NCBI GenBank assembly: GCA_937928795.1
Contig: CALFWB010000040.1
Span: 34,496-98,495, forward strand
Reading direction: 5' to 3'
Length of the DNA: 64,000 nt
From: an uncultured Anaerolineales bacterium
GTDB taxonomy: Bacteria > Chloroflexota > Anaerolineae > Anaerolineales > UBA4823
In this document: one piece after another, positions 41,207 to 50,492 of the stretch
Layout: every line of letters begins with the position of its first letter
How positions within the stretch are numbered: the stretch's first letter is position 1
Translations under genes and position numbers: made by a program
The notes under the pieces: model-generated
What the model was told of the DNA's origin: nothing
Seen by the model: only the letters and a program-made list of their open reading frames with translations
Database searches by the model: none

Positions 41207-41284
41207 GTGTGCACTCAAAAGTTGTTGGCAACATTGCTTTGTAGGACAGTTCATTGAGTTGTCCTACAACTTTTGCGTGGACAC
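41207..41284. mobile_element. 78-bp palindromic MITE, copy 3
   Basis: It has the same orientation as copy 1, with ends GTGTGCACTCAAAAG and GCGTGGACAC. The flanks AAGGTTAT and AAGGTTGT match at 7 of 8 positions, indicating a slightly decayed target duplication. One base change inside the central palindrome (GGACAGTTCATTG) also points to an older copy. It sits between divergent guaB and the aromatic operon. Confidence 0.88.
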
Positions 41285-41407: not shown

Positions 41408-41436
41408 TTGACTTTCCTTTCTCTTTTTCATAAAAT
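41408..41436 (+). promoter_or_regulatory. Sigma-70-type promoter of the aromatic amino acid operon
   Basis: TTGACT (41408-41413), a 17-bp spacer and TAAAAT (41431-41436). The predicted transcription start (about 41443) falls within 0-3 nt of the ATG of the leader peptide at 41445. Confidence 0.8.
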
Positions 41437-41444
41437 CACAAGTA

Positions 41445-41522
41445 ATGAAGGCCTGGTTTGCTTTTTACCGCTATTTTTATTACTTCGGCAAGTTTCCTGC
41501 GACTGCCGTTGGCGGTGCTTAA
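41445..41522 (+). CDS. Aromatic-rich leader peptide of the aro operon (25 aa)
   Basis: The frame reads MKAWFAFYRYFYYF, then GKFPATAVGGA and TAA. Ten of 25 residues are aromatic (one Trp, four Tyr, five Phe), nine of them within positions 4-14. It lies between a strong promoter and an intrinsic terminator upstream of chorismate mutase and DAHP synthase, which is the architecture of attenuator peptides such as PheL/TrpL. No Shine-Dalgarno site is present and the predicted mRNA starts at or just before the ATG, so translation would be leaderless. Stalling at the Phe/Tyr run when these amino acids are scarce would leave the antiterminator arm (41497-41513) free. Confidence 0.85.
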   Translation: MKAWFAFYRYFYYFGKFPATAVGGA

Positions 41523-41586
41523 GCAAGCATAAGGTCCTCAATCTAGAACCAAATCCTGCGAAGCCAACGGCTTCGCAGATTTTTTT
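41497..41586 (+). promoter_or_regulatory. Transcription attenuator (antiterminator/terminator switch)
   Basis: Terminator: CTGCGAAGCC (41556-41565), loop AAC, GGCTTCGCAG (41569-41578), then A and seven T (41580-41586). Competing pairing: CTGCGA-CT-GCCGTTGGC (41497-41513) is complementary to GCCAACGGC-T-TCGCAG (41563-41578), 15 bp with a small internal loop, which would break the terminator stem. The upstream arm lies in the last codons of the leader peptide, so a ribosome that reaches the stop codon (41520-41522) covers it and the terminator forms. A ribosome stalled at the aromatic codons (41454-41486) leaves it exposed. Confidence 0.85.
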
Positions 41587-41602
41587 ATCTAGGAGTCGAG
41601 CA

Positions 41603-41986
41603 GTGGCATTGCGTGGTGTACGTGGAGCGATAGTTGTAGAGGAGAATTCTGCCGAGGCAATTCTTGCCGGAACAAGCCGCTTGTTGCGGGCAATGCTCTC
41701 TGCGAACCCTTCTCTGAGCGCGGAGGAAGTTGCCAGTTGCTTCTTTACGGTGACGCCTGACTTGACAGCAGAGTATCCAGCCAAGGCTGCTCGACAGCTT
41801 GGATGGACAGAAGTACCCTTGATTTGTGCGCAAGAAATGGCTGTTCCACATGGTTTGAGGCGTTGTGTGCGTATTTTGATCCATTGGAATACTGACTTAA
41901 ATCCTGCGCAGATAGAGCATGTTTATTTAGGGGAGGCAGCCAAACTGCGCCCTGAATGGGAATTTCCGCGCCGAATGTCGGCATAA
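41603..41986 (+). CDS. aroH: Chorismate mutase, AroH type
   Basis: The 127-residue product has the monofunctional B. subtilis-type chorismate mutase residues at the same numbering: Arg7 (RGVRGAI), Cys75 and Glu78 (ICAQEMAVP) and Arg90 (RRCVRILIH). It converts chorismate to prephenate for Phe and Tyr. The start is GTG at 41603 with AGGAG 7 bp upstream; the long upstream frame is an artefact that reads through the MITE and the attenuator. It is the first structural gene of the operon. Confidence 0.92.
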
Positions 41987-42008: not shown

Positions 42009-43049
42009 ATGATTATCATTATGAAAGCTCAGGCGACTCAATCTCAAGTTGATGGGGTGGTGCGACGCATTGAGGAACATGGCTTGCGTGCTCACCTCTC
42101 GCAGGGCGAAGAGCGCTGTATTATCGGTGCTATTGGCGACGACCGCCCGATCGATAAAGACTCCTTCCTTTTGTTAGATGGGGTCGATCAAGTTTTACCG
42201 ATTTTGAAACCCTATAAGTTGGCTTCACGGGATTTTCAAGCCCACAATTCAACCTTTCGGTTAGATGGAGTAACCATTGGGTCGAACTCCATTGTGATCA
42301 TTGCCGGCCCTTGCTCGGTTGAGGATCGGGTGCAATATATCGAAACAGCCTTCGCCGTGCGGGAAGCCGGTGCTCACGCTTTGCGCGGCGGAGCTTACAA
42401 ACCGCGCACTTCACCGTACTCGTTTCAAGGTTTGGGTGAACCCGGTTTAGAAATCTTAGCTGAAGCGAGAGAGCGCACCGGTATGCCGGTGGTCACCGAG
42501 GTGATGGCTCCGGAGCAAGTGCCATTGGTTGCCAAATACGCCGATGTGATGCAAATTGGGGCGCGCAACATGCAGAATTTTGCGTTGTTACACGCAGCCG
42601 GAGAGAGCCAACACCCGGTTCTGATCAAACGCGGCATGATGGCTACGATCGAGGAGTTACTAATGGCAGCTGAATATGTGCTATCGCATGGCAATCGGCG
42701 GGTGATTTTATGCGAACGTGGCATCCGTACCTTTGAGACCGCAACGCGCAACACAACCGATATTAACGCTATTCCTGTGCTTAAGGAAGCCACTCACCTG
42801 CCGGTCATTTTGGATCCGAGCCATAGCACCGGCCGATGGGAGTACGTAACAGCGGTTGCGAAAGCAGCCGTTGCTGCCGGCGCCGATGGCTTGATGATCG
42901 AAGTCCATCCTAACCCGGCGGAGGCTAAGTCGGATGGGGCGCAATCCTTGAAACCGGAGCGCTTTGCCGAATTGGTGCGTCAAGTTCGCTTGATCGCTGA
43001 AGCGGTCGGACGCGATCTAAAAGCTTCCGAACATGCATTCGTTCAATGA
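42009..43049 (+). CDS. aroF: 3-deoxy-7-phosphoheptulonate (DAHP) synthase, type I-beta with regulatory domain
   Basis: This 346-residue protein has an N-terminal ferredoxin-like regulatory domain (residues 1-70: [21 protein letters not shown]) and a TIM-barrel with [44 protein letters not shown] and [13 protein letters not shown]. It condenses PEP and erythrose-4-phosphate, the first step of the shikimate pathway. The extra N-terminal domain confers Tyr/Phe feedback inhibition in related enzymes such as that of Thermotoga. AAAGGAG lies 6 bp before the ATG; it overlaps tyrA by 4 bases. Confidence 0.95.
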
Positions 43050-43906
43050 GCCGCCAGCTTCCCTTATCTTTATCCAATTGTCGCGTCTTAATTGTCGGTT
43101 TGGGGTTGATGGGTGCCTCACTTGCCCTCGCATTGCGTGGTAAGTGCAAAGCTCTCTATGGCGTGGATCAAGATGAGGATACCTGTCGTTTAGCGCTGAT
43201 GCACGAGGTGGTAGATGCGGTTTGGCAAGATGCCACCCAAACCCGAACGGTGGACTTAATCGTATTAGCCGTACCAGTGGGGCAAATCTTGCGCTTGTTA
43301 GAAAGAATCAACCAGACCATCCAAACCCCGGCGGTTGTAATGGATATCGGTTCAACTAAGACAGCAATCTGTAAAGCGATGGAAGGATTAGCCGCCAATT
43401 TTGATCCCATCGGCGGGCATCCGATGTGTGGCAAGGAAACGTTGGGCATCCAATCTGCAGAGGCAGCCATCTATCAAGGTGCACCATTTGCCCTTGTGCC
43501 ATTAGAACGCACCAGTCCATACGCTAAATCCCTCGCCGAACAATTGGTTACCGCAATTGGCAGCCATATTGTCTGGTTGGATGCTGAAACCCATGATCGC
43601 ATGGTTGCTGCCGTCAGCCACTTACCTTACCTCCTCGCTAGTGCTTTGACCCTTGGCACACCCTTAGAATTGACTTCGCTGATCGGTCCGGGGTTTCGCA
43701 GCAGCACCCGCTTAGCGGCGACACCGACAACGATGATGTTGGATGTCCTTAAGACGAATCGGGCTTTTATCCTTGAAGCGATCGAAAGGGTAGAAGAGCA
43801 ATTAACCCAATTGAAAACCTCTCTTGCTAACGAGGAATATGACGATCTAAATCGACAGCTCAATACCGCCGCTGAACACTTGCAGAAAATCCTTCAAAAA
43901 GGATAA
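43046..43906 (+). CDS. tyrA: Prephenate dehydrogenase
   Basis: The 286-residue protein has an N-terminal Rossmann fold ([19 protein letters not shown]), [35 protein letters not shown] and the helical C-terminal half with [13 protein letters not shown]. It oxidises and decarboxylates prephenate to 4-hydroxyphenylpyruvate using NAD(P). There is no ACT domain, so feedback control must come from elsewhere. Overlap with aroF is ATGA. Confidence 0.93.
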
Positions 43907-43910
43907 GCCG

Positions 43911-45242
43911 ATGAGATGTATCGTCAAAGGTGGAAAACCGCTCAGAGGCAAAGTCAGGCTACCCGGAGATAAGTCGCTATCCCATCGAGCCATTTGTTTT
44001 GCTGCTCTGGCAGAAGGAAGCAGTGAAATCGAGAATGTGCTCCTTGCTGGAGTTACCCAACCGATGTTGGACGCCCTGAGCGCTTTTGGAATCGCTTGGT
44101 CTTTGAATGAGCAAAGATTGACGGTTGAGGGAAAAGGTTTAGATGGATGGCAAGACCCTCAAGCGGTGATTGGTTGTGGCAACTCAGCGACTACAATGCG
44201 TTTGCTCGCCGGGGCGATGGCAGCGACCAATGTGGGTGGTGTTCTCGATGGCAGTGCCGGCTTAAGGCGCCGCCCGATGGAGCGCATTGTTCAACCTTTG
44301 CGGAATATGGGAGTTGAGATAGAAGCAACCAACGGTTGCGCGCCGTTGACGCTGCGCCACTCAAAACGTCCTTTGCGTGGAATGGATCATCAACTTGCGG
44401 TTGCCAGTGCGCAGGTGAAAACCTGCCTGATCTTGGCCGCTTTAGTTGGTGACCGCCCGACGCGCATTTTTGAGCCAGGCCCTTCTCGCGATCATACCGA
44501 ACGCATGTTAGGCAGCATGGGAGCCAAGGTTGAGTCGAACAAGACTGATGGCAAAGAGATGGCTATTTATCAAACCTACGTGGAGCCCCTCGCTAAGCCA
44601 CTTAAGCCCCTTAAGATGAACCTGCCCGGCGACATCTCTTCGGCAGCCTTTTTCGTTGTCGGTGGATTGATTGCTCCCGAGTCGGAGATTGAGATTGAAA
44701 ATGTCGGCTTGAACCCGACCCGGACCGGATTATTGGATGCGCTGGGCGAGATGCAAGCTGCGCTTTCAATTTTGCAGACCATGGAGCAGGGCGGAGAACC
44801 CTGTGGCTGCATTGGCATCCGTCATTCTACGCTTAAGCCTACAAAAGTCATGGGTGAGCAGGTCGTGCGCATGATTGACGAATTCCCGGTCTTTGGCGTT
44901 GCCGCTGCCTACGCAGCGGGCGAAACGCTTGTTGCCGATGCACAAGAATTGCGCTATAAAGAATCCGATCGGATTGCCATGCTATGTCAAGAATTGCGCA
45001 AATTGGGGGTTGAGGCGATCGAAACCGCTGACGGATTTCGGGTGATTGGCAAAGGCAAGATCGAAGGGGGCGAGGTAGAAGCCCACGGAGATCATCGCTT
45101 AGCGATGGCGCTCATGGTTGCCGGTCTTGGTTCTAGGGAGGCGGTTGTCGTGAATGGCGCCGAAGTCGTCAACGAATCGTTGCCGCAATTTATCCCACTG
45201 TTACGCTCCTTAGGGGCGCAAATCCTTTGTGAAGATAGCTAG
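43911..45242 (+). CDS. aroA: 3-phosphoshikimate 1-carboxyvinyltransferase (EPSP synthase)
   Basis: The 443-residue protein has LPGDKSLSHRA (Lys21), GCGNSATTMRLLAG (88-101), GSAGLRRRPM, RDHTERML and YKESDRI...AHGDHRLAMAL. It transfers enolpyruvate from PEP to shikimate-3-phosphate. Residues 91-95 read N-S-A-T-T where glyphosate-sensitive class I enzymes have N-A-G-T-A, so Ala93 occupies the position of E. coli Gly96. This resembles glyphosate-insensitive enzymes such as CP4 type. AAGGA lies upstream at 8 bp. Confidence 0.96.
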   Translation: MRCIVKGGKPLRGKVRLPGDKSLSHRAICFAALAEGSSEIENVLLAGVTQPMLDALSAFGIAWSLNEQRLTVEGKGLDGWQDPQAVIGCGNSATTMRLLAGAMAATNVGGVLDGSAGLRRRPMERIVQPLRNMGVEIEATNGCAPLTLRHSKRPLRGMDHQLAVASAQVKTCLILAALVGDRPTRIFEPGPSRDHTERMLGSMGAKVESNKTDGKEMAIYQTYVEPLAKPLKPLKMNLPGDISSAAFFVVGGLIAPESEIEIENVGLNPTRTGLLDALGEMQAALSILQTMEQGGEPCGCIGIRHSTLKPTKVMGEQVVRMIDEFPVFGVAAAYAAGETLVADAQELRYKESDRIAMLCQELRKLGVEAIETADGFRVIGKGKIEGGEVEAHGDHRLAMALMVAGLGSREAVVVNGAEVVNESLPQFIPLLRSLGAQILCEDS

Positions 45243-45244
45243 AA

Positions 45245-46138
45245 ATGAGTTATCGATTTGGTCTGTTGGGCTATCCCTTAACTTATAGCCTTTCCCCGCT
45301 TATTCACCAAGTTTTTCTGGAAGAGAGTGGATTACAGGGGAGTTACGAGTTGATCCCGATTGCAGTGGATGAGGGGATGGAGGAGAGGCTGCGAGTGGTG
45401 CTGGAGCAAGTCAGGCGGGGTGAATATGATGGTCTAAACGTGACTATCCCCCACAAACAGGCCGTTAAGACCTTGCTTGATGCTTTGGATGAGACAGCTA
45501 GCGTGGTGGGAGCGGTAAACACGATCTACTGCCGCAAGGGTTGCTTGATTGGCACCAACACGGATGTGGAAGGATTTTTGCGGGATGTTGGGGAAAAGGT
45601 CTCCTTAGCGGAGGGTGGAACAGCCCTAATCCTCGGCGCCGGTGGAGCGGCGCGGGCGGTAGCCTACGGATTGCTAAAGAACGGTTGGCAGGTATGGATT
45701 GCGGCAAGGCGTCTTGAACAGGCTACACAAATCGTGCGTGACCTGATAAAACTTGGCAACTCACAGCCAGAAAATCCCCGTCGAATGCGAGCGCTTTCTC
45801 TGGTGCAGGATTTAGCGTTTGCAGTTGAAGAAAACCAATCGCTTCGTTTGGTGGTGAACGCTACCCCTGTAGGGACGAGTGGGATTGAAAACGGCTCTCC
45901 TCTCCCCCCTCAAGTCTGTTTTTCCAATGAAACCTGTTTTTATGACTTGGTTTATAATCCTCCCGAAACGGCCTTTCTGCGCCAAGCTCGTGAGCGCGGG
46001 TGTAAAGCGTGGAATGGCTTTGGAATGTTGATTCAGCAAGCTGCATTGGCGTTTGAGTGTTGGACCGCTCGACAGTTGCTTGTTACTCCAGAAGTTCAAG
46101 CCAAAATCTTTTCAAGGATACAAAAGCACCATGATTGA
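45245..46138 (+). CDS. aroE: Shikimate dehydrogenase
   Basis: This 297-residue protein has the shikimate-binding N-terminal domain (FGLLGYPLTYSLSPLIHQ, NVTIPHKQAV with the catalytic Lys, AVNTI) and a Rossmann domain (ALILGAGGAARAVAYGLL). It reduces 3-dehydroshikimate to shikimate with NADPH. It starts 2 bp after aroA and overlaps the aminotransferase by 8 bp. Confidence 0.95.
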   Translation: MSYRFGLLGYPLTYSLSPLIHQVFLEESGLQGSYELIPIAVDEGMEERLRVVLEQVRRGEYDGLNVTIPHKQAVKTLLDALDETASVVGAVNTIYCRKGCLIGTNTDVEGFLRDVGEKVSLAEGGTALILGAGGAARAVAYGLLKNGWQVWIAARRLEQATQIVRDLIKLGNSQPENPRRMRALSLVQDLAFAVEENQSLRLVVNATPVGTSGIENGSPLPPQVCFSNETCFYDLVYNPPETAFLRQARERGCKAWNGFGMLIQQAALAFECWTARQLLVTPEVQAKIFSRIQKHHD

Positions 46139-47300
46139 AGCTGCCAACAGAATGCAAACCCTAAAGACGCAATTCTTTGCCGGGCTTGCGGCGCGCATTG
46201 CTGCGCTTGAAGCTCAAGGGATCAAAGTCATTCGCTTGGATGTTGGATCGCCGGACCTGCCCCCATCACCCTCGATTTTAGAAGCCCTCTACCGTTCTGC
46301 CAATCGCCCTGATACGCATGGTTATCAGCCGCATTTCGGCAGCCAAGCGCTTTTGAACGCTTGGGCGCAAATGTATCGCAATGCTTATGGGGTAGAGGTT
46401 GATCCCAAGACGGAGATTGTGCCTTTATTAGGTTCTAAGGAGGGTATCTTTCATCTGACCCAAGCCCTTGTTGATCCGGGTGATGTGGTCTTAATCCCCG
46501 ACCCGGGCTATCTTACCTATGAGGCATCCACTCGCTTCGCCGGTGGGGAAGTTTATCGGATGCCTTTGTTGCCACAAAACGACTATTTGCCGGATTTTGC
46601 CACCGTTCCGCCTGAAATTGCCGCGCGGGCAAAGATCATGTGGCTCAATTATCCCAACAATCCAACGGCAGCGACAGCCACGCGGGAATTTTTCGAGCGC
46701 GCGGTGGAATTCGCTCAGGCGCATCGCATTCTCCTATGCCATGATGCCTCTTACACTCAAATCACCTTCGACGGTTATCGCTCTCCCTCAATTTTTGAAG
46801 TTGACTGCGCAAAGGAGGTTTCGGTCGAGTTTAATACCCTTTCCAAATCGCATAACATGGCTGGGTGGCGGGTCGGTGCTGCGCTGGGGAATGCTTCGGC
46901 GCTAAAGTCTCTCTATATCCTCAAAACTCAAGCGGACTCCGGGCACTTTCGTCCCATTCTGGATGCAGCCGTGCAAGCCATGACCGAGGATCAGGGTTGG
47001 CTGCAAGAGCGCAATCAAATCTACCAGCGGCGGCGCGATTTGATCGTTAAGTCTCTTAAACAAATGGGAATTAATGTACAGACGCCACGGGCTTCGCTCT
47101 ATGTATGGATGCCTTTACCAAATGGTCGGAGCAGTGAGGCGTTTTGTCAACAGTTACTTGAAGAAGCCCATGTGAGCCTTACACCGGGCACGGTGTTCGG
47201 CAAATACGGCGAGGGATACGCTCGCATTAGCATCTGTCTGGCGGATAATTTGATCCTTGAGGCAATGGATCGTTTAGCCAACTGGATGGCAAAGCAATGA
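46131..47300 (+). CDS. PLP-dependent class I/II aminotransferase
   Basis: This 389-residue fold-type I aminotransferase shows LDVGSPDLPPSPSIL, GSKEGIFHLTQALVDPGD, NYPNNPTAATAT, HDASYTQITFDGY, the PLP lysine in TLSKSHNMAGWRVG and the carboxylate-binding Arg in YARISICL. It resembles the LL-diaminopimelate/aspartate aminotransferase group. Its position between aroE and aroC suggests it is the aromatic aminotransferase converting phenylpyruvate and 4-hydroxyphenylpyruvate to Phe and Tyr; that is inference. The start at 46131 gives the usual N-terminus and overlaps aroE by 8 bp. Confidence 0.88.
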   Translation: MIEAANRMQTLKTQFFAGLAARIAALEAQGIKVIRLDVGSPDLPPSPSILEALYRSANRPDTHGYQPHFGSQALLNAWAQMYRNAYGVEVDPKTEIVPLLGSKEGIFHLTQALVDPGDVVLIPDPGYLTYEASTRFAGGEVYRMPLLPQNDYLPDFATVPPEIAARAKIMWLNYPNNPTAATATREFFERAVEFAQAHRILLCHDASYTQITFDGYRSPSIFEVDCAKEVSVEFNTLSKSHNMAGWRVGAALGNASALKSLYILKTQADSGHFRPILDAAVQAMTEDQGWLQERNQIYQRRRDLIVKSLKQMGINVQTPRASLYVWMPLPNGRSSEAFCQQLLEEAHVSLTPGTVFGKYGEGYARISICLADNLILEAMDRLANWMAKQ

Positions 47301-48466
47301 GCTTGCGCTTTTTGACGGCTGGCGAATCGCATGGGCCAGCGCTGATTGCGATTTTAGAGGGCATTCCGGCCGGCTTGGCTATGGATATGGATTTCATTGA
47401 TCGAGAGTTAGCGCGCCGCCAAACAGGTTATGGTGCTGGCCCGCGCATGAAAATGGAAAAAGATCGGGCGGTTTTTCTGGGCGGAGTCATGGAGGGCAAG
47501 ACAATCGGCGCACCTTTAGCCATCTGGATCGAAAACCTTGATCATAGCCGCTGGAAGGGCAAGCTAATTGAAAGCATGACCATCCCTAGACCCGGCCATG
47601 CCGATCTGACCGCAACGCTCAAATATGGCTATAACGATTTGCGGCCGGCTTTGGAGCGCGCCTCGGCACGTGAGACGGCTGCAAGGGTGGCGGTTGGCGC
47701 AGTGTGCAAGCTATACTTGTGCCAATTCGGGATTCGCATCGAAGGATATGTGCGTTCGATTGCAGAAATCGAGGCTCAGGTGGACGCCATTCCTTTGGAG
47801 GAGCGCTTCAAGCTCGCTGAAGGGTCTCCTTTGCGTTGTCCAGACGAAGCCGCAAGCCAGGCGATGCAGGAACGCGTACGACGGGCAATGGAAGAGAAGG
47901 AGACTCTCGGAGGAGTTTTGGAGGTGATCGCTTTTGGTGTTCCGGCGGGATTAGGTTCGCACGTCCAATGGGATCGGCGCTTAGAGGCGCGCTTAGGCGC
48001 CGCCGTTTTGAGCATTCAAGCTATCAAGGGGGTGGAGGTCGGACCCGCTTTTGAGAATACACGCCGAAGCGGCACCCAAGCGCAGGATGGCATTTACCTA
48101 GAGGGCAATCGTCTGGTGCGGCGCACTTGGCGCAATGGTGGAATTGAAGGCGGCATTTCAACCGGTGAACCGATCCTCCTGCGCGCCGCCATGAAACCGA
48201 TCGCTACAACCCTAACTCCTCAGCCATCTGTGGATTTACGCAAGGGTGTAGAAACCCAAACCCGCTATGAGCGCTCGGATTTTTGCCCGGTGCCGCGCGC
48301 CGTGCCGATCCTTGAAGCGATGGTCGCTTTTGTGATTGCTGATGCCTTGACCGAAAAACTCGGCGGTGACTCGCTTCAAGAGCAATTGCAGCGCTTTGAG
48401 CAATTGCCCAAGATGACCATCGATCATTTTTCGCTAGATGGAGGGGAGCATCTCTTTTGGGAATGA
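47297..48466 (+). CDS. aroC: Chorismate synthase
   Basis: This 389-residue FMN enzyme has SLRFLTAGESHGPALIAILEGIPAGL, RRQTGYGAGPRMKMEKD, RPGHADLT, RASARETAARVAVGA and GGIEGGISTGEPI. It eliminates phosphate from EPSP to make chorismate. It overlaps its neighbours on both sides by ATGA. Confidence 0.97.
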   Translation: MSLRFLTAGESHGPALIAILEGIPAGLAMDMDFIDRELARRQTGYGAGPRMKMEKDRAVFLGGVMEGKTIGAPLAIWIENLDHSRWKGKLIESMTIPRPGHADLTATLKYGYNDLRPALERASARETAARVAVGAVCKLYLCQFGIRIEGYVRSIAEIEAQVDAIPLEERFKLAEGSPLRCPDEAASQAMQERVRRAMEEKETLGGVLEVIAFGVPAGLGSHVQWDRRLEARLGAAVLSIQAIKGVEVGPAFENTRRSGTQAQDGIYLEGNRLVRRTWRNGGIEGGISTGEPILLRAAMKPIATTLTPQPSVDLRKGVETQTRYERSDFCPVPRAVPILEAMVAFVIADALTEKLGGDSLQEQLQRFEQLPKMTIDHFSLDGGEHLFWE

Positions 48467-50046
48467 GAAATATTTACCTGTATGGGCCGCCTGCTTCGGG
48501 TAAATCCACCATTGGTTCTCGCCTAGCGGAACGGAGCGGTCTTGCTTTTGTCGATTTGGATGAGGTGATCCAGACCAGTGCCGGGCTGAGTATCCCCCTA
48601 GTTTTTGAACGGGAGGGAGAGGCGGGATTTCGTCAGCGCGAAAGGGAAGCTTTGCGCAGGGTTGCTGCTGCTTCCAATCAGGTAATCGCTTTAGGGGGTG
48701 GAGCATTACTAAGCATAGAGAATCGTAAGCTGTGTGAACAGAGCGGAATGATCTTCTGCTTGCAAGCAGCCTATCCAACCCTCCTCCAGCGTCTGGGTTT
48801 CGATGACAACCAACGCCCACTCTTGGCTCAGGATGCCGCCGCTCAGCTTGAAAAGCTTTTGACCGAGCGCCTGCCGCATTATTTGTCCTTTGAGCATCAA
48901 ATTGCCGTGGATGGCCGCTTGGTTGAAGACATCGTGTGGGAAATTCAACTGAAAGCCGGGATATTCTTTGTGCGTGGCATGGGAAAAGGCTACCCCGTGC
49001 GCGTTGAGAGCGGTGGACGGCTTAGATTGGGCGAGATTCTACACGAACAAGGGCTGAAAGGCTCTGTTCTTATTCTAAGCGATGAAAATGTGGCTGCAAT
49101 TTACCTAGAGGGTGTAGAACGAAGCCTTGCCAGAGAGAGCTTCGGCTATCACTCCCTCGTTTTACCGGCCGGAGAGCAAACCAAAAACATCCAAACGATT
49201 CAAGAGATCTGGCGCGAAATGGTTGAAGTTGGCGTTGAACGAACCAGTTGTCTGGTGGCTTTGGGCGGAGGGGTGGTTAGCGACATCGGCGGCTTTGCTG
49301 CAGCCACCTATATGCGGGGCATCCCTTGGGTTGCCTTGCCAACAACCCTGCTTGCAATGGCAGATGCCAGCTTAGGAGGTAAAACCGGGGTAGATTTACC
49401 GCAAGGGAAAAATCTAATTGGGGCCTTTCATGCGCCGAGTCTTGTTTTGGCCGATCCCGAAACTTTGGTCACCCTACCCGAAAATGAATGGCGGGCGGGA
49501 ATGGCAGAGATCGTCAAGGCGGGGGTCATCGGTGATGCGCACTTATTTGAAATCTGCGAGAGAGGCGAGACAGAAGCTCGTCAAAAGATGACAGAAGTCT
49601 TGCCGCGGGCTATGGGGGTTAAGGTCAGGGTGATTGAGGAGGACCCATACGAGCGTAAGCGGCGGGCGGTTTTGAATTTTGGGCATACGGTTGCCCATGC
49701 CATCGAAACGCTATCGGATTATCAAATTCTGCATGGCTTTGCTGTGGCGATGGGTATGGTTGCCGAAGCGCACCTCGCCTCTCGGATCGGTCTCTGCTCT
49801 TGGGAGGTGAGAGAACGCCTCGAAGAGACGCTGCGTGGCTTGGGCTTACCCATCCGCCTGCCGAAGCAGTTTGCGCCTCAGGCGATTGTAAAAGCCATGC
49901 AAACCGATAAGAAAAAACAACTTGGTGAACTGCGCTTTGCTTTGCCAGAACGCATTGGCACGGTTCAAGTTGGCGTTCGCCTTGCCGGGGAAGAGGAATT
50001 GATCGAGACCCTGCGCGCTTGTCAGGAAAGAACGGAGCGGGAATGA
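48463..50046 (+). CDS. aroKB: Bifunctional shikimate kinase / 3-dehydroquinate synthase fusion
   Basis: The 527-residue protein joins a shikimate kinase (residues 1-~165: Walker A GPPASGKSTIG, FVDLDEVIQ, FRQREREALRRV, VIALGGGALL) to a 3-dehydroquinate synthase (~175-527: LILSDENVAAIY, LPAGEQTKNIQTIQEIW, ALGGGVVSDIGGFAAATYMRG, GKNLIGAFH, NFGHTVAHAIE). The two catalyse non-consecutive steps (5 and 2) of the pathway. The start at 48463 overlaps aroC by ATGA; a TTG six bases upstream is less likely. Confidence 0.95.
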   Translation: MRNIYLYGPPASGKSTIGSRLAERSGLAFVDLDEVIQTSAGLSIPLVFEREGEAGFRQREREALRRVAAASNQVIALGGGALLSIENRKLCEQSGMIFCLQAAYPTLLQRLGFDDNQRPLLAQDAAAQLEKLLTERLPHYLSFEHQIAVDGRLVEDIVWEIQLKAGIFFVRGMGKGYPVRVESGGRLRLGEILHEQGLKGSVLILSDENVAAIYLEGVERSLARESFGYHSLVLPAGEQTKNIQTIQEIWREMVEVGVERTSCLVALGGGVVSDIGGFAAATYMRGIPWVALPTTLLAMADASLGGKTGVDLPQGKNLIGAFHAPSLVLADPETLVTLPENEWRAGMAEIVKAGVIGDAHLFEICERGETEARQKMTEVLPRAMGVKVRVIEEDPYERKRRAVLNFGHTVAHAIETLSDYQILHGFAVAMGMVAEAHLASRIGLCSWEVRERLEETLRGLGLPIRLPKQFAPQAIVKAMQTDKKKQLGELRFALPERIGTVQVGVRLAGEEELIETLRACQERTERE

Positions 50047-50492
50047 GAGAAATTTTGGTTTTACATGGTCCGAACCTTAATCTGCTAGGACAACGCGAGC
50101 CACAGGTCTATGGAACGATGACCTTGGATGAAATCAATCAACGGCTTATTGCAGAGGGGCAGAGGCTGGGGATTGGGGTGCGTTGTCTTCAATCCAACTC
50201 GGAAGGAGCGCTGATTGATGCTTTACAAGAGGCACGCAATTGGGCGAGCGGGGTGATTTTCAATCCCGGTGGTTACACCCATACTTCGGTTGCCCTGCGA
50301 GATGCCGTTGCAGCGATTGGGATACCGGTCATCGAAGTACACCTCTCCAATGTGTATGCCCGTGAAGAATTTCGTCACCGCTCTTTGCTCTCTGCCGTGT
50401 GTTGGGGCAAAATTTTAGGCTTGGGGTGGAAATCGTATTGGTTGGCTTTGCATGCCTTTGCCCTGTATTTTGAAGAAGAGGAAACGCGATAA
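50043..50492 (+). CDS. aroQ: 3-dehydroquinate dehydratase, type II
   Basis: This 149-residue protein has the type II signature ILVLHGPNLNLLGQREPQVYG with the catalytic Tyr, then FNPGGYTHTSVALRDAV and VIEVHLSNVYAREEFRH. It dehydrates 3-dehydroquinate to 3-dehydroshikimate. ATG at 50043 overlaps the aroKB stop by 4 bases. Confidence 0.96.
   Translation: MREILVLHGPNLNLLGQREPQVYGTMTLDEINQRLIAEGQRLGIGVRCLQSNSEGALIDALQEARNWASGVIFNPGGYTHTSVALRDAVAAIGIPVIEVHLSNVYAREEFRHRSLLSAVCWGKILGLGWKSYWLALHAFALYFEEEETR

What the first reader, a model, noticed from the sequence alone, without database searches (positions are those of the whole stretch)
41408..41602. Aromatic leader-peptide attenuator controlling a complete shikimate/Phe/Tyr operon
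Seen directly: promoter TTGACT-17-TAAAAT; a 25-codon ORF (41445-41522) with W4, F5, F7, Y8, Y10, F11, Y12, Y13, F14 and F17; a 10-bp GC-rich hairpin plus T7 (41556-41586); and a 15-bp competing pairing between 41497-41513 (last codons of the peptide) and 41563-41578. Known: PheL, TrpL and HisL attenuators work by ribosome stalling on cognate codons. Inferred: scarcity of Phe/Tyr stalls the ribosome before 41497, the antiterminator forms and the chorismate mutase-to-aroQ operon is transcribed. The design needs only two structures, because a ribosome at the stop codon masks the antiterminator arm directly. I know of no described aromatic attenuator of this type in Chloroflexota, but I cannot search.
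Basis: partly seen in the sequence, partly recalled or inferred. Interest (0 to 1): 0.93.

Follow-up and report, generated by a model that had tools for sequence, protein, structure and literature searches.

The report
Phe/Tyr-sensing attenuator of shikimate operon
A short stretch packed with phenylalanine and tyrosine codons sits in front of this Chloroflexota bacterium's shikimate-pathway genes, has counterparts in front of the same first gene in 116 of 138 examined genomes of its class, and is predicted to switch those genes on when these amino acids run short.

Summary
An F/Y-rich ORF followed by a terminator lies upstream of aroH in 117 of 139 class loci examined (116 of 138 genomes, 42 of 46 families); all 119 leaders analysed hold both Phe and Tyr codons. 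Terminator pairs change on both sides in 9 of 10 cases, and the antiterminator co-varies with its own terminator (best tenth in 28 of 89, expected 8.9).
(1) Three competing structures, not two: helix P1, pairing aromatic codons with the stop-codon region, is supported in the window's order and gives the classical 1:2 / 2:3 / 3:4 design; outside the order P1 was not supported. (3) The operon lacks prephenate dehydratase, which lies on another contig. The ORF starts 8 nt after the -10 box, so it is probably leaderless.
It works like PheL/TrpL attenuators but reaches no Rfam threshold. Ten open-access searches found no such attenuator described in Chloroflexota; one likely source could not be read. 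Nothing was tested experimentally.

The parts
41408..41436 (+). Predicted sigma-70-type promoter TTGACT-17-TAAAAT
   Evidence: a promoter-like site of at least 9 of 12 lies before the aromatic run in 94 of 119 leaders against 8.5% of mononucleotide-shuffled regions.
41445..41522 (+). Leader ORF, 25 codons, MKAWFAFYRYFYYFGKFPATAVGGA; ATG lies 8 nt after the -10 box, so the mRNA is predicted to be leaderless or nearly so
   Evidence: aligned with 42 others; start codon 6-11 nt after the -10 in 25 of the 40 leaders of the 43-member set that have such a promoter.
41457..41486 (+). Run of Phe/Tyr codons (F5 to F14), predicted control codons where a ribosome would stall
   Evidence: all 119 analysed runs hold both F and Y.
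41450..41473 (+). P1 5' strands (region 1): 41450-41454, 41456-41463, 41466-41473
   Evidence: MFE fold; P1 swap and synonymous-codon tests in 43 leaders.
41510..41536 (+). P1 3' strands: 41510-41517 (overlaps the antiterminator arm), 41521-41528, 41532-41536
   Evidence: in the 43-member set shuffling the aromatic-codon strand opens the antiterminator in ribosome-free RNA.
41500..41518 (+). Antiterminator 5' arm (region 2): core 41505-41513, inner extension 41500-41502, second extension 41516-41518
   Evidence: Core kept in 30-41 of 42-43 leaders per pair, extensions in 32-39 of 41-43.
41558..41575 (+). Antiterminator 3' arm: 41563-41571 with the core, 41558-41560 with 41516-41518, 41573-41575 with 41500-41502
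41497..41499 (+).
   Evidence: Paired in 22 of 39, 16 of 41, 8 of 41 leaders.
41556..41586 (+). Intrinsic terminator: 10-bp stem, AAC loop, A then T7
   Evidence: two-sided changes at 9 of 10 pairs, 95.3% of cells paired in 43 leaders.
41603..41986 (+). aroH, chorismate mutase (GTG start), first gene of the operon
   Evidence: TIGR01796 135.4 bits over cut-off 82.
42009..50492 (+). Rest of the predicted operon: DAHP synthase, prephenate dehydrogenase, aroA, aroE, class I/II aminotransferase, aroC, fused shikimate kinase-aroB, aroQ; no prephenate dehydratase

Best explanation
Window 41408-41602 holds a leader whose aromatic-rich 25-codon ORF, terminator and competing RNA pairings are predicted to act as a ribosome-mediated transcription attenuator that would open the aro operon when charged Phe- or Tyr-tRNA is scarce. 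Transcription likely starts about 8 nt after the -10 box, at or next to the ATG, and the ORF is likely translated as a leaderless message (inferred from spacing). With ample Phe/Tyr the ribosome would run to the stop codon and cover region 2 (41500-41518); after it leaves, or if it never loads, P1 (aromatic codons with 41510-41536) would hold region 2. Either way the terminator 41556-41586 would form. When Phe or Tyr is short, the ribosome would stall among codons 5-14, break P1 and leave region 2 free. Region 2 would pair with the 5' arm and loop of the terminator as they emerge, before the 3' arm is complete, so RNA polymerase would read on into aroH...aroQ. Shown by calls: the sequence parts, their recurrence, and the co-variation of the terminator, the antiterminator and (in the order) P1. 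Inferred: start site, translation, stalling, read-through.
For: Recurrence: F/Y-rich ORF plus terminator in 117 of 139 class loci, 116 of 138 genomes, 42 of 46 families; 41 of 43 in the order. Controls for the ORF: 107 of 140 against 0 of 140 reverse complements, 1.7% of shuffles, 0 of 61 downstream stretches. Terminator: two-sided changes at 9 of 10 pairs. Antiterminator: 87.0% of cells paired against 27.9-44.6% when slid, covariation score 0.197 against 0.052-0.085. Own terminator loop in the best tenth for 28 of 89 distinct loops (expected 8.9, p 2e-8), controls 9, 7 and 6 of 89. Against synonymous recoding of the ORF end, best tenth in 21 of 43 and 51 of 76. P1 in the 43-member set: best tenth in 16 of 43 by swap and 19 of 43 against synonymous recoding. 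With the transcript cut three bases into the terminator's 3' arm, at least 6 antiterminator pairs form in 43 of 43 leaders with the ribosome on the last aromatic codon and in 7 of 43 without ribosome. Shuffling region 2 gives 42%; shuffling the ORF up to the end of the aromatic run raises the ribosome-free figure from 16% to 66%. In the window the terminator-stem probability falls from 0.95 to 0.00 when a ribosome sits on the last aromatic codon of the run. The operon makes chorismate and prephenate and holds the Tyr-branch dehydrogenase.
Against: No expression, start-site or ribosome data. At equilibrium on full-length RNA the terminator still wins in 39 of 43 leaders when stalled at the last aromatic codon, and in this window when stalled at the first (0.94), so kinetics must matter. 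P1 in the register tested is not supported outside the order (8 and 11 of 76), and 44 of 76 such leaders form the antiterminator without a ribosome. 22 of 139 class loci lack the ORF-terminator pair. The 0 of 43 at the stop codon follows from the assumed footprint. The count of antiterminator pairs with two-sided changes (7 of 12) is not above slid versions (5-8). The operon lacks pheA, whose upstream region shows no leader. Sequences are related, so the p values overstate independence.
Confidence: 0.9

Rival explanations
1. The ORF encodes a functional small aromatic peptide and the hairpin is a constitutive, partly leaky terminator.
For: The ORF is widespread in the class, and at equilibrium the terminator dominates in most leaders in every ribosome state.
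Against: F and Y interchange and the C-terminal residues differ between families while their codons still pair with their own terminator. Synonymous recoding weakens the antiterminator (best tenth in 51 of 76 and 21 of 43).
Confidence: 0.03
2. The leader is a riboswitch, T-box or protein-binding leader and the ORF is incidental.
For: A terminator and antiterminator alone would fit any such leader.
Against: No Rfam family at gathering score in 20 leaders scanned; in the window only Leu_leader at 20.3 bits (cut-off 50) among leader families up to E = 10, no T-box. Both F and Y codons occur in 119 of 119 runs.
Confidence: 0.03
3. A two-structure attenuator, without a P1 helix: the ribosome at the stop codon alone masks the antiterminator arm.
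For: Outside the order P1 is not detected in the register tested, and 44 of 76 such leaders form the antiterminator without a ribosome, so that branch may use this simpler scheme.
Against: In the window P1 holds region 2 and ribosome-free RNA forms no antiterminator (0.0 pairs). In the 43-member set P1 exceeds swap and synonymous controls.
Confidence: 0.08

Closest known systems
E. coli PheL-pheA and TrpL-trp attenuators (recalled; a passage in PMC3766115, names Phe attenuators as previously characterised)
   Same: Cognate-codon leader ORF, 1:2 / 2:3 / 3:4 pairings, intrinsic terminator before the first structural gene.
   Different: Both Phe and Tyr codons in one leader, and the shikimate pathway plus chorismate mutase and prephenate dehydrogenase downstream. 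PheL senses Phe in front of pheA only (recalled). No match at gathering score to any Rfam family.
Corynebacterium glutamicum ilvBNC attenuator (PMC11857589, passages)
   Same: Terminator, antiterminator and antiantiterminator with overlapping hairpins, and a leader peptide.
   Different: Branched-chain control codons, Actinobacteria; sequence relation not tested here.
Sinorhizobium meliloti trpL (PMC7298713, passages)
   Same: Attenuator RNA whose 5' end starts at the leader ORF's ATG (leaderless), as predicted here.
   Different: Trp leader of a Sinorhizobium; the 5' end is reported there and only inferred here.
Rfam RF00512 Leu_leader
   Same: Best match over 41445-41586 (20.3 bits, E 0.15).
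   Different: Far below its gathering score of 50; the ORF has no Leu codon.

Membership tests
Ribosome-mediated (leader-peptide) transcription attenuator | Short leader ORF rich in codons for an end product of the operon's pathway | tested here: met
   107 of 140 loci against 0 of 140, 1.7% and 0 of 61 in controls; both F and Y in 119 of 119 runs.
Ribosome-mediated (leader-peptide) transcription attenuator | Intrinsic terminator between leader ORF and first gene | tested here: met
   (computational).
Ribosome-mediated (leader-peptide) transcription attenuator | Antiterminator that excludes the terminator and is freed by a ribosome on the control codons | tested here: met
   (computational; kinetic reading, since at equilibrium only 4 of 43 switch).
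Ribosome-mediated (leader-peptide) transcription attenuator | Protector helix (1:2) that keeps region 2 closed without ribosome | tested here: met
   Met in the window and the 43-member set; not supported in the other 76 class leaders.
Ribosome-mediated (leader-peptide) transcription attenuator | Leader ORF translated, stalling on control codons, read-through under limitation | not testable with these tools
   No expression data at hand.
A described Rfam amino-acid leader family | Score at or above the family's gathering threshold | tested here: not met
   (best Leu_leader, 20.3 against 50); 0 hits in 20 leaders scanned.
T-box | Rfam T-box match upstream of the terminator | tested here: not met
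   Not among matches up to E = 10 in the window, nor at gathering in 20 leaders.

The most novel reading that the evidence does not exclude
Leader-peptide attenuation is an old, general amino-acid control system of Chloroflexota, present before the window's class and at least one sister class split: one Phe+Tyr leader governs the shikimate operon, and sister leaders with Thr codons govern aspartokinase in the same order. That would contradict the suggestion in PMC3766115 that such amino-acid attenuators arose in Gammaproteobacteria with few transfers.
Probability: 0.6. Interest if true: 0.72.

Novelty: new member of a known kind. Interest (0 to 1): 0.6.

Why it matters
[quoted passage not shown] A passage in PMC3766115 (2013) suggests a gammaproteobacterial origin of amino-acid attenuators. 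A class-wide Phe/Tyr attenuator in Chloroflexota, with Thr counterparts, would show the strategy in another deep lineage and make its age and origin testable. It also gives a regulatory handle on aromatic biosynthesis in a phylum known mostly from uncultured genomes (recalled), and pairings that can be tested by mutation in a reporter.

Tried and rejected
Trp leader at trpE: 15 trpE loci of relatives scanned; three held ORFs with three or more W, none looking like a leader; the window's own genome gave no trpE hit. Branched-chain leader at ilvB: 22 loci scanned, only three GTG-started ORFs with 7-8 I/L/V in 12 codons; in the window's genus ilvB looks internal to an operon by eye, so the operon's real front was not examined. 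Leader at the genome's pheA: none. Further copies of the leader in the genome with model R1: E = 0.72 or worse; two were printed and not analysed further. Equilibrium folding of full-length RNA as the switch test: works for this window at the last aromatic codon, not for 39 of 43, so the transcript was cut inside the terminator. A homologue search with the 25-residue peptide and structure prediction were not run.

Rows left out. Of 142 class genomes with an aroH match entered the counts. Left out: G144 (match at the contig end), G128 and G093 (weak or partial matches) and G177 (my oversight). G177 and G093 were looked at after the counts: both have an aromatic ORF (8 and 5 in 12 codons) with a hairpin and T-run. 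The figures were not changed for them.

Faults of my own: one search scanned 11 minus-strand loci in the wrong orientation (corrected from then on). In one search one control (spacer) used a placeholder for short spacers, so its mean energy is meaningless and only its rank count (6 of 89) is used.

Literature limit: ten searches of the open-access library, listings seen, passages of six papers read. Lopatovskaya et al. 2010, a likely place for an earlier prediction, is not held, so priority is not settled.

Full report
What is there. The ORF lies between a promoter-like site and aroH, and the gene on the other side (guaB) is divergent, so the terminator lies inside the aro transcription unit. 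Named relatives at 78-80% AroH identity are Anaerolineae or Anaerolineales metagenome-assembled genomes, and their contigs match those of same-genus genomes by length, which places the window in Chloroflexota.

Recurrence. I took the DNA upstream of aroH from 139 loci of 138 class genomes (aroH was found in 39 of 61 relatives and 106 of 150 class genomes, with overlap; four of 142 genomes left out, see Tried and rejected) plus 7 named contigs (three of its ten loci duplicate genomes already in the set). An ORF with at least 5 aromatic residues in 12 codons, followed by a hairpin and T-run, is present in 117 of 139 class loci, 42 of 46 families; with at least 6, in 110 of 139, 40 of 46 families. 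In the order it is 41 of 43. Of the 7 named contigs, two (L035, L036, both labelled Anaerolineae) have it and five do not: two labelled Bacillota, one Leptolyngbya, one FCB group, one Chloroflexi. Each of the 119 analysed runs holds both F and Y; 45 also hold W.

Outside the class. A covariance model hit 41 of 400 phylum genomes at E up to 0.01, mostly in the window's order, some only partially (stricter filters, so a lower bound). Of 60 loci picked, 13 have at least 6 aromatics and 12 of those a terminator; three more (f74) have 5 aromatics and a terminator. One of the 60 (G407) belongs to the window's order, the rest to other classes. Clear cases in other classes are in families f74, f84, f110 and f113; single doubtful ones in f77 (no terminator) and f97. 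No leader with terminator was seen in the sampled loci of f79 (7), f80 (3) or f92 (4), among others. Genome sizes suggest that f84 is Herpetosiphon-like and f79 Ktedonobacteria-like, but that is recalled, not tested. One further genome, G544, has an aromatic leader and a hairpin before a class I DAHP synthase-like gene (gene named by eye, not by a family search).

The three pairings. Alignment A1 holds 43 leaders: 41 of the order and 2 named Anaerolineae contigs. Terminator: 95.3% of cells paired, two-sided changes at 9 of 10 pairs. Slid versions give 27.9-44.6% paired against 87.0%, but also 5-8 pairs with two-sided changes against 7, so the pairing percentage and covariation score carry the argument, not that count. 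Because the core is nearly constant in the order, I tested co-variation by swapping partners across 89 distinct terminator loops: 28 in the best tenth (expected 8.9), controls 9, 7 and 6. A first, unrestricted version of that swap test over all 119 leaders, against the whole hairpin, gave 32% in the best tenth and 13% in the best twentieth. Against synonymous recoding of the ORF end the antiterminator is in the best tenth in 21 of 43 and 51 of 76. P1 slides along the ORF between species, so it was tested the same way: 16 of 43 by swap and 19 of 43 against synonymous recoding in the order set, but 8 and 11 of 76 elsewhere. In one search P1 gave 25 of 89 with a narrow stop-codon segment (two controls with the same segment 12 and 13) and 34 of 89 with a wider one.

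Dynamics by folding. With the transcript ending three bases into the terminator's 3' arm, the antiterminator (at least 6 expected pairs) forms in 43 of 43 with the ribosome on the last aromatic codon, 40 of 43 on the first, 7 of 43 with no ribosome, and 0 of 43 at the stop codon, the last by construction of the footprint. Shuffling region 2 gives 42%, so a single case proves little and the set carries the weight; shuffling the ORF up to the end of the aromatic run raises the ribosome-free fraction from 16% to 66%. In the other 76 leaders the figures are 73 stalled and 44 ribosome-free, with 51% in region-2 shuffles and a rise from 58% to 71% on shuffling the ORF front. For 13 leaders chosen from outside the class it is 13 of 13 stalled and 9 of 13 ribosome-free, 49% in shuffles. 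At equilibrium on the full terminator the window itself switches (0.95 to 0.00 at the last aromatic codon, still 0.94 at the first), but 39 of 43 do not; the mechanism must then be kinetic, as in classical attenuation (recalled).

Start of the leader. A promoter-like site of at least 9 of 12 lies before 94 of 119 runs (8.5% in shuffles). In the 43-member set 40 have one, and in 25 of these the start codon is 6-11 nt after the -10 box, so leaderless translation is likely in those but unproven; most of the others have longer predicted 5' ends. Leaderless attenuator ORFs are known: the S. meliloti trpL transcript starts at its ATG (PMC7298713, passages).

Place among known systems. It works like the classical attenuators; the features testable here are met, the functional ones could not be tested. 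It reaches no Rfam gathering score. Ten full-text searches of the open-access library found no attenuator of this kind described in Chloroflexota; PMC4833913 (passages) mentions Chloroflexi once, as a group with few genomes or related strains. I read passages, not whole papers.

A second attenuator type. The model also hit a Thr-rich leader before aspartokinase in G039. Of 30 aspartokinase loci of relatives examined, 12 have an ORF with at least 6 T/I in 12 codons, 11 of them with a hairpin and T-rich tail, though several of those hairpins look unlike the aro terminators. Six clear ones, chosen from these, all form the antiterminator when stalled, 3 of 6 also without ribosome, 43% in shuffles. 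The window's own aspartokinase shows none. No chance control was run for the Thr-rich ORFs.

Noticed in passing
L309/L184, L310, L311, L312, L313, L315, L317 (upstream of aspartokinase in relatives): Thr-rich leader ORFs (for example MILFNTTTTTTMMTTGCAHTTVVS) followed by terminator-like hairpins: a likely second attenuator of the same design in the window's order.
   Followed up: partly
L178 (G544, another class of the phylum): Leader MNSVRTYYWNYYFLGLAGGGLLREQ and a hairpin before a class I DAHP synthase-like gene instead of aroH.
   Followed up: partly
Window's genome, whole: No trpE hit in the 93%-complete assembly, while all five same-genus genomes searched have one, G001 only a fragment; assembly gap or real loss not resolved.
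   Followed up: no
window 46131-47300: The aminotransferase inside the aro operon is closest to LL-diaminopimelate aminotransferase models but below their curated cut-offs; it may be the aromatic or prephenate aminotransferase.
   Followed up: no
window 41239-41269: A 14-bp inverted repeat (TTGTAGGACAG...TGTCCTACAA) lies in the guaB-aro intergenic region upstream of the promoter; possible operator site.
   Followed up: no
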